Assembly (NCBI RefSeq): GCF_000341285.1
Contig: NW_005178440.1
Location: forward strand, 70,058-134,057
Direction of reading: 5' to 3'
DNA from: Galdieria sulphuraria
Lineage: Eukaryota > Rhodophyta > Bangiophyceae > Galdieriales > Galdieriaceae
Length of the DNA: 64,000 nt
Below, one piece after another: positions 16,907 through 62,153 of this stretch. The position numbers and the translations under genes were made by a program. The stretch's first letter is position 1. Each line of letters opens with the position of its first letter. The notes under the pieces were generated by a model. The model was not told the DNA's origin. It was given only the letters and a program-made list of their open reading frames with translations, and did not search any database.

Positions 16907-17007
16907 AAGGAAGCATTAAAAAACCTCAATAAATAGAAAAAGATATTATACTCTAACTTAGAGTATAATATCTTTTTCTATTTATTGAGGTTTTTTAATG
17001 CTTCCTT
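16907..17007. repeat. Perfect palindrome between dnaK and chlB
   Basis: Arms 16907-16956 and 16958-17007 are exact reverse complements (50 bp each) around a single base at 16957. The left arm begins at the first base after the dnaK stop. The right arm covers the last ten codons of chlB including its stop (30 nt) plus 20 nt beyond. The left arm is therefore an inverted copy of the chlB 3' end. As RNA it would make a long hairpin at the end of either transcript, so a terminator or 3'-stabilising role is likely. Confidence 0.9.
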
Positions 17008-18528
17008 TGCTGAATACATTGTATCTAAATATATTTTAGTAATATTATTTTCTAGAGCAAATTTTTCTGTATTTTTTTTTACTTTGTTACGTACAAAACC
17101 AGGAATCTTTAATAACTCATTCTTAGCCTCTTCCGTCCATTCTATTGATGATTTATTCGTTTCATCTTTTAATGATAGTGTATTACTAATAGTATCACGA
17201 GTATCGTGTCCACCGAAAATTTCTAATAAATGATCTTCCATTCCTAAAGTAAAGGAATTATATATTAAGTCTGCAATCTGATTACTTCCTTCGTATCCTA
17301 AAAAAGGACGATAACTTAAAGGAAAATTCTGAATATGTACGGGTGAAGAAATTACTCCACAAGGAATATTTAATCTTTTTCCTATATGTCTTTCCATTTG
17401 AGTTCCAAAAATAGCGTCTGGTTCAGTTTCTGCAATTAAATCGGCAATAAAATTATGGTCATCAGAGATAATAATTGTTTTACATAAATCATTTATTTCA
17501 TTATTAAACCATTCATCATCATTTTTACAATATGTACCTGCCCAAACAACGTTAATGCCCATTTCTCTAACTAAAATTTTTGTTATTGCAGCAGCATGAG
17601 TAGAGTCTCCAAAAACAACTGCCCTTTTACCTGTTAAGTTTTGACAATCAATTGAACGAGAGAACCATGCAGACTGAGAAATAAACCTAGTCTGCTTATC
17701 GATATACTCTTCATAATTGACATTAACCTGATAGTTCTTTAAAATAGATTGTATTTCTCTAATAAACCTAGCGGTTTCAACTATTCCCATAGGAGTAATA
17801 TCAATATATGGCATCTTAAATTCTTCATGCAAAAATTGAGCTGTTAACAACCCTACTTCATGATATGGAACTACATTAAACCATGCTTCAGGTAATTTTT
17901 TTAATTGATTAACAGAGGTATCATGAGGAATAACCAAATTAATTTTAATATTAAGATCAGAAAACAATTTTTGTATCTCTTTCAAATCATGTTGATGGTG
18001 AAAACCTAAACTTGTTATTCCAATTATATTAACAGATATATCTTTTGTTTTATTAGTTAACAAATTTTTTTCTTTTTTAGCTTTATAAATATAAAATTTT
18101 ACAATTTGTTCTAATGTTTTATCAGCAGCTTGTAATTCATTAACTCTATAATGATTAACATCAGCTAATAATACATCTGCTTTGATTTCCATACTTGCTC
18201 TATTAACAAAATTTTGAAGATCTTCTTGCAAGATACTAGACGTACAAGTTGGTGTCAAAATAATCAGATCAGGTGTAAATTCTTTATCTTTTCTAGTAAT
18301 ATTATTGACAACTTTTTCTTGAGAGCCTCTTGCTAGTACATGCCTATCTACTACACTTGTAGTAACAGGTGTAAAATTTCGTTCCCTTTCCAGCATTGAT
18401 TTCATTACATTAAAATAATCGTCTCCAAGAGGAGCATGCATAATAGCTTGTATATTTTTAAACGAACTTGCTATTCTTAATGTGCCGATATGAGCTGGTC
18501 CTGCATACATCCAATAAGCTAGTTTCAT
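16978..18528 (-). CDS. chlB: Light-independent protochlorophyllide reductase subunit B
   Basis: ChlB is the B component of the dark-operative protochlorophyllide reductase (DPOR), which with ChlN and ChlL makes chlorophyllide without light. The 516 residues are one uninterrupted frame, with no intron such as those reported in some red algal chlB genes. It begins [16 protein letters not shown]; Asp36 (in [10 protein letters not shown]) matches the family's Fe-S cluster ligand. ChlL and ChlN are not in the window. Its last ten codons form one arm of the dnaK/chlB palindrome. Confidence 0.97.
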
Positions 18529-18631
18529 ATTTTATTCTCTATAATTTAATCATAATTAAAGTAATTATCAATAATTATATTGAATAATATAAAACAAATC
18601 TTAGTAAAATTTAGGAGGATAATAATATTAT

Positions 18632-18681
18632 TTGATATTTTGATAATAGAACATTATTTTATTCTATTATCAAAATATCAA
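18632..18681 (-). terminator. Hairpin 3' of hlpA
   Basis: Perfect inverted repeat with 20-bp arms (18632-18651 and 18662-18681) and a 10-nt loop, 13 nt past the hlpA stop and upstream of chlB on the minus strand. It is most simply the hlpA transcript terminator. The rest of the 166-bp spacer shows nothing recognisable. Confidence 0.7.
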
Positions 18682-18694
18682 TATAACTATTGTT

Positions 18695-59429: not shown

Positions 59430-59960
59430 ATGTTCTTTGATGTTTTAGGTTATGAGATTTCGAAATATTCAATAAAGATAAATTTCGATTTATTAGAAAC
59501 TAATATAATTAATATCTTTATATTAATTATTATGTTAATATATCTGGGAAGAAAATTTCTGGGCAGTATTCTTATAAATAGACAAAATAGAGTAATTACA
59601 TCTATCCGAGAATCAGAAGAACGTTTAGAAAAATCAACTATAAGACTTAGTGAAGCGAAAAATCAATTAAGTTCTGCACAAATTATAATAAATCAAATAA
59701 AACAAGAAGCTAAAAATACTGCATCCTCTGTTAAAGAGTCAATTTTAAAACAAGGTAAGACTGATATAGAGAGACTATTATTAAATACTAAGAATTATAT
59801 TTATAATACAGAATTACAAATCAAAAAACAAATTAAGCAGCAAATTGCTGCTCTAGCCTTACAAAAGGTACAAAGTAAATTAAAAGATGAATTAGATAAC
59901 AATCTCCAACAAAAAATTATTGATCAGAGTCTAGCAATGTTAACGATAAGGAACAAATAA
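59430..59960 (+). CDS. atpF: ATP synthase CF0 subunit b
   Basis: Second peripheral-stalk subunit: one N-terminal span (about 28-46) and a long coiled-coil. I start at the ATG at 59430 (176 residues, MFFDVLGYEISKYS); a GTG two codons upstream (59424) is an alternative. No intron, unlike land plants. Its stop TAA overlaps the atpD start by one base (TAATG), so coupling is likely. Confidence 0.95.
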   Translation: MFFDVLGYEISKYSIKINFDLLETNIINIFILIIMLIYLGRKFLGSILINRQNRVITSIRESEERLEKSTIRLSEAKNQLSSAQIIINQIKQEAKNTASSVKESILKQGKTDIERLLLNTKNYIYNTELQIKKQIKQQIAALALQKVQSKLKDELDNNLQQKIIDQSLAMLTIRNK

Positions 59961-60535
59961 TGCATAATAATTACAAAATAGCTAAAGTTTATGCAGAAGG
60001 TTTATTTGAAATAGCTAAAACTAAAAATTCATTAACTGAAATCAATGAACAATTGAATTCAATTAAAACTCTTTTAAAAAAAATGCCTGAATTTTATTAT
60101 TTTTTAGTTAATCCTCTAATTGATCAACAAATAAAAAAAAACGCTATTAAAATTATTTTTAATAAAAATCTTGATAAGATAACTTTAAATTTTTTATTAA
60201 TATTAATTGAACGAAGAAGAATGATATACTTTTATGATATTGTTGATCAATTTATTATAATTTGGAATAAAGCTACAAGTACTAGTATAGTTGAAATCTC
60301 GTCAGTAATTTCATTAACAGAACAACAACAACAGTATTTAATTAATAAATTAAAGGAAATAACTAAAGCTAGTTACATTGAACTTAAATTGAAAATCGAT
60401 CCAAGTCTGATTGGTGGTTTAATTATTAGATTTGGATCCAATTTAATAGATTTAAGTTTAAGGGGACAAATTGAAAAATTCGCCTTATATTTAGGAATAA
60501 ATNAGTATTATACAAACAATAAAATCATAGGTTAA
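59960..60535 (+). CDS. atpD: ATP synthase CF1 delta subunit
   Basis: Links the peripheral stalk to the top of F1. The frame gives 191 residues, starting MHNNYKIAKVYAEGLFEIA and containing DPSLIGGLIIRFGSNLIDLS near the end. Base 60503 is N within the codon NAG: A, C or G leave the frame open to 60535, while T would make a stop and shorten the protein to 181 residues. The 3' end is therefore uncertain. Confidence 0.93.
   Translation: MHNNYKIAKVYAEGLFEIAKTKNSLTEINEQLNSIKTLLKKMPEFYYFLVNPLIDQQIKKNAIKIIFNKNLDKITLNFLLILIERRRMIYFYDIVDQFIIIWNKATSTSIVEISSVISLTEQQQQYLINKLKEITKASYIELKLKIDPSLIGGLIIRFGSNLIDLSLRGQIEKFALYLGINXYYTNNKIIG
60503..60503. other. Ambiguous base (N) in atpD
   Basis: A single N in the codon NAG. 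It decides whether atpD ends here (TAG) or ten codons later. Confidence 0.99.
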
Positions 60536-60541
60536 ATTTAT

Positions 60542-62059
60542 ATGGTAAATATTAGACCTGATGAAATAAGTACAATTATTAAAGAACAGATTGAAAAATA
60601 TGAAACAGATATTCGTTTATCAGCTGTTGGTACTGTTCTTCAAGTTGGAGATGGCATTGCTAGGGTTTATGGATTAGAGGAAGTTATGGCTGGAGAATTG
60701 TTAGAATTTGAGGACAAGACTGTAGGAATAGCATTAAATTTAGAAAATGATAATGTTGGTGTAGTATTAATGGGAGAAGGCTCTAATATATTAGAAGGGA
60801 GCCCAGTTAAATCTACAGGAAAAATTGCACAAATACCTGTTGGAGAAGAATTTTTAGGAAGAGTAGTAAATGCTTTAGGCAAATCAATTGATGGTAAAGT
60901 TGAACCTATATGCTCTGAAAATAGATTGATTGAAATGTTAGCACCAGGTATAATTGTGCGCCAATCAGTTTGTGAACCATTGCAAACTGGTATAACAGCA
61001 ATTGACGCTATGATTCCTATTGGGAGAGGACAACGTGAACTTATAATTGGCGATAGACAAACAGGTAAAACTTCAATTGCTTTAGATACAATTATTAATC
61101 AAAAAGATCAAGATGTCATTTGTATTTATGCTGCGATAGGACAAAAAGCTTCTTCTGTAGCGCAAGTTGTATCAACTCTCGAAGAAAAAGGGGCATTAGG
61201 CTATACTATAATAGTTGCTGCTAATGCAGATGAACCAGCAACTCTACAGTATATTGCACCTTATACTGCTGCTAGCTTAGCTGAATACTTTATGTATAAA
61301 GGAAGGGCAACTTTAGTAATTTATGATGACTTAACTAAACAAGCACAGGCATATAGACAAATGTCTCTATTATTGCGTAGACCTCCAGGAAGAGAAGCTT
61401 ATCCAGGCGATGTGTTTTATTTGCATTCTAGACTCTTAGAACGTGCGGCAAAGTTAAATCAAAAATTAGGCGGGGGAAGTATGACGGCTTTACCTATTAT
61501 AGAAACACAAGCAGGAGATGTCTCAGCATATATTCCTACTAATGTAATTTCAATTACTGATGGTCAGATTTTTTTATCTAGTGATTTATTTAATTCAGGA
61601 ATTAGGCCTGCTATTAATGTTGGTATATCCGTCTCTAGAGTAGGCTCTTCTGCACAAATCAAAGCTATGAAACAAGTAGCTGGTAAGTTAAAATTAGAAT
61701 TGGCACAATTTGCTGAATTAGAAGCTTTTTCTCAATTTGCTTCTGATTTAGATAAAGCAACACAAAATCAACTTGCTCGAGGACAAAGATTAAGAGAAAT
61801 GCTAAAACAATCTCAAAATTCTCCAATTCCAGTAGAGGAACAAATAGCTATTATTTATAGTGGAATTAACGGCTATCTAGATGAAATTCCATTACATAAA
61901 GTAAGTTCTTTTATTAAAGCCTTAAGAGAGTATATTGTCAATTCTAAATCAAAATTTATTGAACTTATTAAAATTAATAAACAACTAGTTTCAGAGGCTG
62001 AAGACATCCTAAAACAATCAATTCAAGAGACAAAAGCTACTTTTTTAACTAATGAATAA
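60542..62059 (+). CDS. atpA: ATP synthase CF1 alpha subunit
   Basis: Regulatory nucleotide-binding subunit of F1. The 505 residues hold the P-loop [15 protein letters not shown] near residue 170 and the signature [20 protein letters not shown]. The length is standard. It ends the atp operon and converges on sufC; its final codons (TNE) lie in a palindrome that also includes the end of sufC. Confidence 0.99.
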
Positions 62060-62153
62060 TAAATAAAATTAAAAGAAGAAATAAAATCTTTGTAAGAGTA
62101 TCCTTACAAAGATTTTATTTCTTCTTTTAATTTTATTTATTATTCACTAGTTA
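62046..62153. repeat. Palindrome joining the atpA and sufC 3' ends
   Basis: Arms 62053-62096 and 62103-62146 (44 bp) are exact reverse complements with a 6-nt loop; beyond one mismatch the pairing extends to 62046 and 62153 (51 bp). The left arm covers the last codons of atpA and the right arm those of sufC, so the two proteins end TNE and TSE. It is a probable bidirectional terminator. Confidence 0.92.

What the first reader, a model, noticed from the sequence alone, without database searches (positions are those of the whole stretch)
16907..62153. Family of long perfect palindromes at gene 3' ends
Seen directly: exact or near-exact inverted repeats at 16907-17007 (50-bp arms), 26571-26649 (38), 28590-28638 (22), 35460-35542 (40), 40010-40207 (96), 45964-45995 (12), 58804-58874 (33) and 62046-62153 (44 to 51), plus a partly decayed one at 41293-41385. 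Most include the final codons of a gene. Plastid 3' hairpins are known, but near-perfect arms this long that take in coding sequence imply a process that keeps the arms identical. I infer repeated template switching or gene conversion across the hairpin, with termination or RNA stability as the payoff.
Basis: partly seen in the sequence, partly recalled or inferred. Interest (0 to 1): 0.85.

Follow-up and report, generated by a model that had tools for sequence, protein, structure and literature searches.

The report
Self-copying hairpins in an algal plastid
The plastid DNA of the hot-spring red alga Galdieria carries many long, almost perfect hairpins, mostly at the ends of its genes, and one of them appears to have overwritten the last five amino acids of the deeply conserved cytochrome f gene with the tail of the gene next door.

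Summary
The palindromes are real and far beyond chance. The window has 10 perfect inverted repeats with arms of at least 20 nt; 40 Markov sequences gave none (longest arm 17). It lies in a 158,315-bp Galdieria sulphuraria plastid contig. Its 127,974 readable bases hold 30 palindromes (arms 17-96 nt), excluding one suspected artefact; 23 are perfect, with 9 mismatches in 1,100 arm pairs. With spacers of at least 40 nt, palindromes occupy 10 of 10 convergent, 12 of 54 tandem and 1 of 12 divergent protein-gene junctions.

Key new evidence: cytochrome f (petA) ends KVQAKQLNI in 8 Galdieria sequences including the window, but in 0 of 109 other listed homologues with a readable tail (76 end QAAEMNF). 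KQLNI is also the tail of odpB, the convergent neighbour on the other arm, and the stop codons are exactly mirrored. The simplest reading is an odpB-to-petA copy across the hairpin. One environmental petA (P0124) does not fit.

Stem-loops in this plastid were already described (Jain et al. 2015, recalled), and template-switch hairpins are a known kind. A 296-nt palindrome beside 20 N is probably an assembly artefact.

The parts
16907..17007 (.). Perfect palindrome, 50-nt arms, 1-nt loop, between convergent dnaK and chlB; left arm starts at the first base after the dnaK stop, right arm holds the last 30 nt of chlB including its stop
   Evidence: dnaK by PF00012; chlB name recognised from the translation, not confirmed by a search
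18632..18681 (.). Perfect palindrome, 20-nt arms, 10-nt loop, 13 nt downstream of the HU-like gene (18695-19018, -)
   Evidence: gene name recognised by eye
21976..22017 (.). Perfect palindrome, 18-nt arms, 6-nt loop, between accB-like and psaA
   Evidence: gene names recognised by eye
26571..26649 (.). Perfect palindrome, 38-nt arms, 3-nt loop, 3 nt after the psaB stop, before rps14
   Evidence: psaB
27701..28301 (.). 296-nt near-perfect inverted repeat carrying psbK and petG reading frames in both arms; suspected contig-end fold-back artefact next to 20 N
   Evidence: 3 mismatches, close to the 9-nt loop; gene names by eye
28304..28360 (.). Perfect palindrome, 26-nt arms, 5-nt loop, between psbK (-) and psbZ (+), a divergent junction beside the suspect repeat
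28590..28638 (.). Perfect palindrome, 22-nt arms, 5-nt loop, overlapping the psbZ end by 7 nt, before trnG
29776..29837 (.). Perfect zero-loop palindrome, 31-nt arms, inside the CGLD27/ycf36-like ORF (residues 36-56)
   Evidence: (PF06799)
30572..30615 (.). Perfect zero-loop palindrome, 22-nt arms, 2 nt after a 36-aa ORF and before the acsF-like gene
35460..35542 (.). Palindrome, 40-nt arms (1 mismatch), 3-nt loop, between convergent odpB and petA; both genes end in the mirrored sequence coding KQLNI and TAG
34501..35478 (+). odpB (pyruvate dehydrogenase E1 beta), inferred donor of the KQLNI tail
35524..36501 (-). petA (cytochrome f), inferred recipient; tail KVQAKQLNI where most listed homologues have KVQAAEMNF
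40010..40207 (.). Perfect palindrome, 96-nt arms, 6-nt loop, between tandem apcE and apcA; left arm holds the last 31 nt of apcE including its stop
41293..41385 (.). Partly decayed palindrome, 45-nt arms 84% complementary, between convergent apcB and atpE; left arm holds the conserved apcB end ICSGLS
45964..45995 (.). Short palindrome, 12-nt arms, at the infB end; not significant alone
   Evidence: 0.83 arms of 12 nt or more expected per window
58804..58874 (.). Perfect palindrome, 33-nt arms, 5-nt loop, overlapping the last 12 nt of atpH including its stop
   Evidence: atpH recognised by eye
62046..62153 (.). Palindrome, 51-nt arms (1 mismatch), 6-nt loop, between convergent atpA and sufC; both stop codons exactly mirrored

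Best explanation
The window is part of the Galdieria sulphuraria plastid. Its palindromes are mostly mRNA 3'-end hairpins that arise and are kept identical by short-range copying across a fold-back (template switching during DNA synthesis, or conversion across a cruciform). One arm is usually the constrained 3' end of a gene, and the other arm is its reverse-complement copy written into the spacer. Arms grow until they meet coding sequence of the facing gene, so their feet sit at stop codons. Occasionally the copy crosses into the facing gene and replaces its C-terminus, as odpB did to petA. Hairpins are probably retained at mRNA 3' ends because they terminate or protect transcripts, from both sides at convergent junctions. 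Shown here: anatomy, excess over chance, position bias, and the petA tail that matches odpB. Inferred: that the tail was copied and in which direction, the process, its recurrence, the limit set by coding sequence, and the benefit.
For: Perfect arms far over chance. 30 palindromes in 127,974 readable plastid bases, 23 perfect, 9 mismatches in 1,100 arm pairs; none with arms of 17 nt or more in 40 kb of nuclear sequence. 23 of 30 have a foot within 20 nt of a protein-gene 3' end, against a mean of 1.3 (max 6 in 2,000 draws) for random placement and 6.2 (max 14) for random centres inside spacers. Protein-gene junctions with spacers of at least 40 nt: convergent 10 of 10, tandem 12 of 54, divergent 1 of 12. 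petA ends KQLNI in the window and 7 other Galdieria proteins, in 0 of 109 other listed homologues with a readable tail; the four cytochrome f structure alignments shown have EMN there. odpB ends KQLNI in 3 of 3 Galdieria-like sequences, and other listed odpB tails include AIKQLLN and SVKKILNS. odpB and petA tails agree in both Galdieria pairs (one on contigs of equal length, one with successive gene-model numbers) and not in two unnamed other pairs on contigs of equal length. Both genes use AAG (14% of Lys codons) and TAG (15% of stops). apcB, ycf33/DUF565 and apcE arms hold protein ends conserved in their families, which marks them as the likely source arm.
Against: P0124, an environmental petA otherwise identical to the G. 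yellowstonensis type P0123, ends QLAEMNF, the ancestral-like tail: a metagenome chimera, or a sign that the history is not one ancestral event. Five of the 30 palindromes have no loop (25780, 26693, 99833, 100629, 147526 in contig coordinates), which a simple intrastrand fold-back does not readily give. Two palindromes lie at divergent junctions and one inside a gene, which the 3'-end benefit does not explain. The contrast with convergent tRNA junctions (0 of 11) is confounded: 9 of those 11 have spacers under 40 nt, and a palindrome itself lengthens a spacer. No DNA from a second Galdieria was available to show arms changing together. No RNA data.
Confidence: 0.67

Rival explanations
1. Selection alone: long perfect stems are favoured for RNA stability and are kept perfect by ordinary compensatory substitutions, without a copying mechanism.
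For: Strong 3'-end and convergent-junction bias; stable predicted RNA stems, e.g. -146.8 kcal/mol for 40010-40207.
Against: Five residues plus the stop codon at the end of petA match odpB exactly in DNA, including two rare codon choices. A 96-bp perfect stem seems far longer than an exonuclease block needs (my judgement). One perfect palindrome sits inside an ORF.
Confidence: 0.12
2. Gene conversion between the arms through an extruded cruciform or between plastid genome copies, rather than polymerase template switching; fold-back repair of hairpin ends could explain the zero-loop cases.
For: Plastids are polyploid and recombine (general knowledge); five palindromes have no loop; arms of 51 to 96 nt are long for short-range switches.
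Against: No tract or crossover data. Equally compatible with what was seen here, so not separable; it is one branch of the best explanation.
Confidence: 0.25
3. Assembly or library artefact (inverted chimeric reads).
For: The 296-nt repeat begins one base after a run of 20 N and duplicates psbK and petG, and psaA is frameshifted in this record.
Against: The other palindromes lie between two different genes or inside one, and the petA tail recurs in proteins from G. partita, G. yellowstonensis and G. phlegrea records.
Confidence: 0.03
4. A family of mobile palindromic elements inserted at gene ends.
For: Many palindromes in one genome, as reported for Volvox and Lobosphaera organelles (seen only as starts of abstracts in a search listing, and, for Lobosphaera, in the nematomorph discussion).
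Against: Arms are unrelated to each other: the matches among 30 left arms at E up to 0.01 are only 10-16 nt long. Many arms hold the local gene's own codons.
Confidence: 0.02

Closest known systems
Intergenic stem-loops of the Galdieria sulphuraria 074W plastid (Jain et al. 2015, Genome Biol Evol)
   Same: Same genus and organelle. As I recall the abstract, the plastid contains a large number of intergenic stem-loop structures. The title was seen in a reference list; the paper itself is not held and was not read.
   Different: I cannot say what it reports on arm identity, coding overlap or transfer of a C-terminus; not checked.
Template-switch-made hairpins (Monttinen and Loytynoja 2022, PMC8794818; abstract and opening read) and quasipalindrome correction
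   Same: A single switch can create a perfect stem or repair an existing one, and can explain complex multi-base changes.
   Different: Described there for RNA genes; here at the 3' ends of protein genes with arms up to 96 nt.
Coding palindromes in nematomorph mitochondria (Mikhailov et al. 2019, PMC6649704; abstract, discussion and passages read)
   Same: Long, nearly all perfect inverted repeats in AT-rich organelle DNA (110 of at least 15 bp in four genomes); authors also propose template switching.
   Different: There the repeats lie within protein-coding sequence; here arms mostly straddle gene ends and spacers. Only 29776-29837 is of the nematomorph type.
Template switching changing proteins in yeast (Abraham and Hazkani-Covo 2021, PMC8604942; passages read)
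   Same: Arm homogenisation causing up to five neighbouring amino acid replacements in one gene.
   Different: Short repeats in coding regions; here the donor is a different, convergent gene and the stop codon is carried along.
Plastid mRNA 3' inverted repeats (recalled; no paper read on them)
   Same: Hairpin just after the stop codon.
   Different: As recalled, usually short and imperfect. For 60 red algal plastids a survey gives 19 bp as the longest repeat for 50% of sequences (PMC6081594, passages); here up to 96.

Membership tests
Template-switch (quasipalindrome-corrected) inverted repeats | Near-perfect arms well over chance | tested here: met
Template-switch (quasipalindrome-corrected) inverted repeats | A block change in one arm that the other arm explains as template, against relatives | tested here: met
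   petA tail matches odpB tail in Galdieria only, (protein level for relatives; one case; P0124 is an exception)
Template-switch (quasipalindrome-corrected) inverted repeats | Event seen between a known parent and descendant DNA | not testable with these tools
   no second Galdieria DNA reached; five scans of viral contigs gave none
Plastid 3' UTR stability hairpins | Stem-loop at the stop codon of protein genes | tested here: met
   23 of 30 feet within 20 nt of a protein 3' end
Plastid 3' UTR stability hairpins | Mature RNA 3' end maps to the hairpin | not testable with these tools
   no RNA data
Intrinsic (rho-independent) terminators | GC-rich stem followed by a T run | tested here: not met
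   the 14 window palindromes printed have GC 4-30% and no consistent T run in the 10 nt on either side
Nematomorph-type coding palindromes | Both arms inside coding sequence of one gene | tested here: not met
   met only by 29776-29837 among the 30; the suspect 296-nt repeat is left out
Dispersed palindromic mobile elements | Copies share sequence | tested here: not met
   all-against-all blastn of 30 left arms, matches of 10-16 nt only

The most novel reading that the evidence does not exclude
In Galdieria plastids fold-back copying is frequent enough to act as an evolutionary force: it keeps about 30 hairpins identical and repeatedly overwrites the C-termini of neighbouring genes. Cytochrome f has received the odpB tail more than once; P0124 would be a surviving or regained ancestral allele within one species. 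The sufC tail (TSE, ASE or ANE in four Galdieria) would have been written by atpA in the same way.
Probability: 0.3. Interest if true: 0.72.

Novelty: new variant of a known kind. Interest (0 to 1): 0.52.

Why it matters
How long RNA stems arise and stay perfectly paired is a standing question. A small unicellular alga with about 30 natural test cases, and with named relatives whose plastid proteins are already in public records, makes it directly testable. The petA case suggests that a mutational process at a hairpin can rewrite a protein end that is conserved in nearly all the other homologues listed. It also warns that plastid assemblies and gene models can break or misread at such places.

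Tried and rejected
Tried without result: relatives' DNA in IMG/VR with five protein queries. They returned one 5-kb contig with a 65% rpoB match (not inspected) and two contigs with psaB at 82% and 75% (L095 looked at and phage-like to my eye; L096 not inspected), nothing from Galdieria. The genome-contig scan with ApcE kept the best 80 of 514 loci; identity was at most 56%, and all but one bear cyanobacterial names. COX1 was not found in the assembly, so no mitochondrial control was made. Rfam at gathering thresholds found only the two tRNAs.

Considered and rejected: mobile element family; rho-independent terminators; wholesale assembly artefact (petA tail recurs in other records). Accepted as probable artefact: only 27701-28301.

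Weaker than hoped: the sufC tail. Galdieria sufC ends TSE, ASE, ASE and ANE, but P0244 ends RLLF and P0245 ends LISES, and Galdieria atpA tails were not obtained, so co-variation with atpA is untested. The contrast of 11 of 13 convergent protein junctions with 0 of 11 convergent tRNA junctions looked strong but is confounded by spacer length; at 40 nt or more only two tRNA junctions remain (0 of 2). Each protein search scored only the 8,000 or so best candidates and listed the best 120, clustered at 90%. For the petA count, of 120 listed rows 10 Galdieria rows were set aside (7 KQLNI, P0124 QLAEMNF, P0127 cut at EKV, P0131 a gene model that lacks the true end), and one row had no tail motif (probably the 206-aa fragment P0200), leaving 109. 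Gene annotation for the junction counts was made by hand from ORFs of 30 aa or more, with 43 ORFs removed, psaA merged over its frameshift and psaD added. The palindrome detector penalises mismatches, so the mismatch rate is a lower estimate.
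Full report
What the window is. The window is G000:C36:70058-134057. C36 is 158,315 bases, and a petA gene model in the protein collection lies on a contig of exactly that length and is named '[pt] cytochrome f [Galdieria sulphuraria]' by NCBI (P0131). The genome has 12.05 Mb in 102 contigs. odpB is 97% identical to an environmental protein and 88% to one named after G. phlegrea Soos. So this is a Galdieria sulphuraria plastid contig. Parts of it outside the window read N; 127,974 bases are readable.

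The observation. Perfect arms of 20 nt or more with a loop of at most 15 number 10 in the window. Thirty order-3 Markov sequences gave none and a longest arm of 15; ten others a longest arm of 17. The 12-nt-arm repeat at 45964 is not significant by itself (0.83 expected).

Whole-plastid survey. A scan of the readable contig finds 31 palindromes. Leaving out the 296-nt one, 30 remain, arms 17-96 nt, 13 of them in the window; 23 are perfect, with 9 mismatches in 1,100 arm pairs. The detector penalises mismatches, so decayed ones are under-counted; 41293-41385 at 84% is one. With settings like those of a published survey of 2,565 plastids (spacer 0-10, at most one mismatch), 17 repeats have arms of 31 nt or more in this contig and 7 in the window. 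The survey reports 1,105 repeats longer than 30 bp in all, about 0.4 per genome, and gives 19 bp for 60 red algae as the longest repeat for half of the sequences (PMC6081594, passages read; its stated size range was 6-60 bp, so comparison is rough). It also reports an extremely low repeat content in Cyanidioschyzon merolae, another hot-spring red alga. Four stretches of other contigs of the same genome (40 kb, 36-40% GC, taken as nuclear) hold no repeat with arms of 17 nt or more. They are less AT-rich, so this is a weak control.

Position. Of 159 gene junctions without masked sequence, palindromes lie at 11 of 24 convergent, 16 of 109 tandem and 2 of 26 divergent ones. Restricted to two protein genes: 11 of 13, 12 of 96 and 1 of 14; the two convergent exceptions have overlapping ends or a 12-nt spacer. 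None of 11 convergent junctions involving a tRNA has one (Fisher p = 3e-5 against 11/13), but 9 of these 11 have spacers under 40 nt. With spacers of at least 40 nt the counts are 10 of 10 convergent, 12 of 54 tandem and 1 of 12 divergent protein junctions (p = 4e-6 and 3e-5), and 0 of 2 convergent tRNA junctions. Palindromes themselves lengthen spacers, so spacer length is not an independent variable. In 23 of 30 the foot lies within 20 nt of a protein-gene 3' end; random placement gives 1.3 on average (max 6), random centres in spacers 6.2 (max 14). Several feet meet the stop codon to the base: dnaK (offset 0), petD (0), psaC (-1) (petD and psaC named by eye). Exceptions matter: 29776-29837 lies inside a CGLD27/ycf36-like ORF, and C36:147526-147643 (59-nt arms, no loop) covers the start of a psbX-like ORF.

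Anatomy of the arms. In several cases one arm carries a protein end conserved in its family: apcB to the last residue (ICSGLS), ycf33/DUF565 to profile position 60 of 60, apcE up to PS(Y/F)K. The other arm lies in the spacer. Arms of different palindromes are unrelated beyond 10-16 nt, so this is not a dispersed element. The 14 window palindromes printed have GC 4-30% without a consistent T run, so they are not textbook intrinsic terminators.

The petA-odpB case. The palindrome 35460-35542 takes in the last five codons and stop of both odpB and petA, in mirror register: odpB TAG at 35476-35478 mirrors petA TAG at 35524-35526. Both tails read AAG CAA TTA AAT ATT TAG, with AAG (14% of Lys codons) and TAG (15% of stops) shared. 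In the four structure alignments shown, cytochrome f has EMN there. Of 109 listed other petA proteins with a readable tail, 76 end QAAEMNF, 13 QASQMNL, the remaining 20 in twelve other forms, none KQLNI. In Galdieria, the window and 7 listed proteins (G. partita, G. yellowstonensis, G. phlegrea, a G. phlegrea Soos model and three environmental ones) end KVQAKQLNI. odpB ends KQLNI in 3 of 3 Galdieria-like sequences, and other listed odpB tails include AIKQLLN and SVKKILNS (20 rows printed). Where odpB and petA come from contigs of equal length, taken as the same contig, the tails match for P0001 and P0129 (Galdieria) and not for two unnamed other pairs; the G. phlegrea Soos models, numbered one after the other, also match. 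The simplest reading is a copy from odpB into petA across the hairpin, probably in a Galdieria ancestor. Against a single event: P0124 equals P0123 (G. yellowstonensis type) except at five of the last six residues and ends QLAEMNF. It is one protein on a 1.8-kb environmental contig and may be a chimera.

A second symmetric case. atpA and sufC stop codons are also exactly mirrored in 62046-62153. Galdieria sufC ends TSE, ASE, ASE or ANE, one or two residues beyond where most other listed SufC proteins stop, and atpA here ends TNE. Two further listed sequences do not fit (P0244, P0245). Suggestive only.

The 296-nt repeat. 27701-28301 has psbK and petG reading frames on each arm, begins one base after 20 N, and its three mismatches lie next to the loop (the place of the mismatches read from the sequence). 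That is what a fold-back chimera at a contig end would look like. It could also be a real, very recent event; only reads can decide. It was left out of the counts above.

Mechanism. Template switching can make or repair perfect stems in one step (PMC8794818, abstract) and can replace up to five neighbouring residues in yeast proteins (PMC8604942, passages). Nematomorph mitochondria show the same mostly perfect character inside genes (PMC6649704, discussion). Here I infer recurrent fold-back copying, stopped by coding constraint in the facing gene, with the product kept mainly at mRNA 3' ends. Strand choice, the five loop-free cases and the enzyme are unexplained; cruciform gene conversion is not excluded.

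Prior knowledge. Jain et al. 2015 reported intergenic stem-loops in this plastid (recalled; title seen in a reference list; text not held). The listings of my searches of the held library showed no paper that I could recognise by title or abstract start as treating coding overlap of these hairpins. The library misses most subscription papers, and I opened only five of the papers listed.

Noticed in passing
window 27681-28301: Run of 20 N, then a 296-nt inverted repeat with psbK and petG reading frames on both arms; probably a contig-end fold-back artefact.
   Followed up: partly
window 29776-29837: Perfect loop-free palindrome (31-nt arms) inside a CGLD27/ycf36-like ORF, both arms coding, like nematomorph coding palindromes.
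   Followed up: partly
window 21997-24310: psaA is split into two overlapping ORFs by a frameshift, probably a base error of this draft record.
   Followed up: no
protein P0131: The public gene model for petA in this record is joined to tatC and lacks the true petA end, so annotation hides the odd tail.
   Followed up: no
protein P0124: Environmental Galdieria petA identical to P0123 but for an ancestral-like tail (QLAEMNF): chimera or real polymorphism at the hairpin.
   Followed up: partly
contig C36:147526-147643: Perfect loop-free palindrome with 59-nt arms covering the start of a psbX-like ORF, a 5' end rather than a 3' end.
   Followed up: no
L095 (IMG/VR contig): A viral contig carries psaA and psaB genes next to ORFs that look like phage structural genes (by eye).
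   Followed up: no
window 41293-41385: The right arm of the decayed apcB palindrome, read backwards, ends ICSGRR instead of ICSGLS: the differences are clustered, not scattered (read by eye).
   Followed up: no
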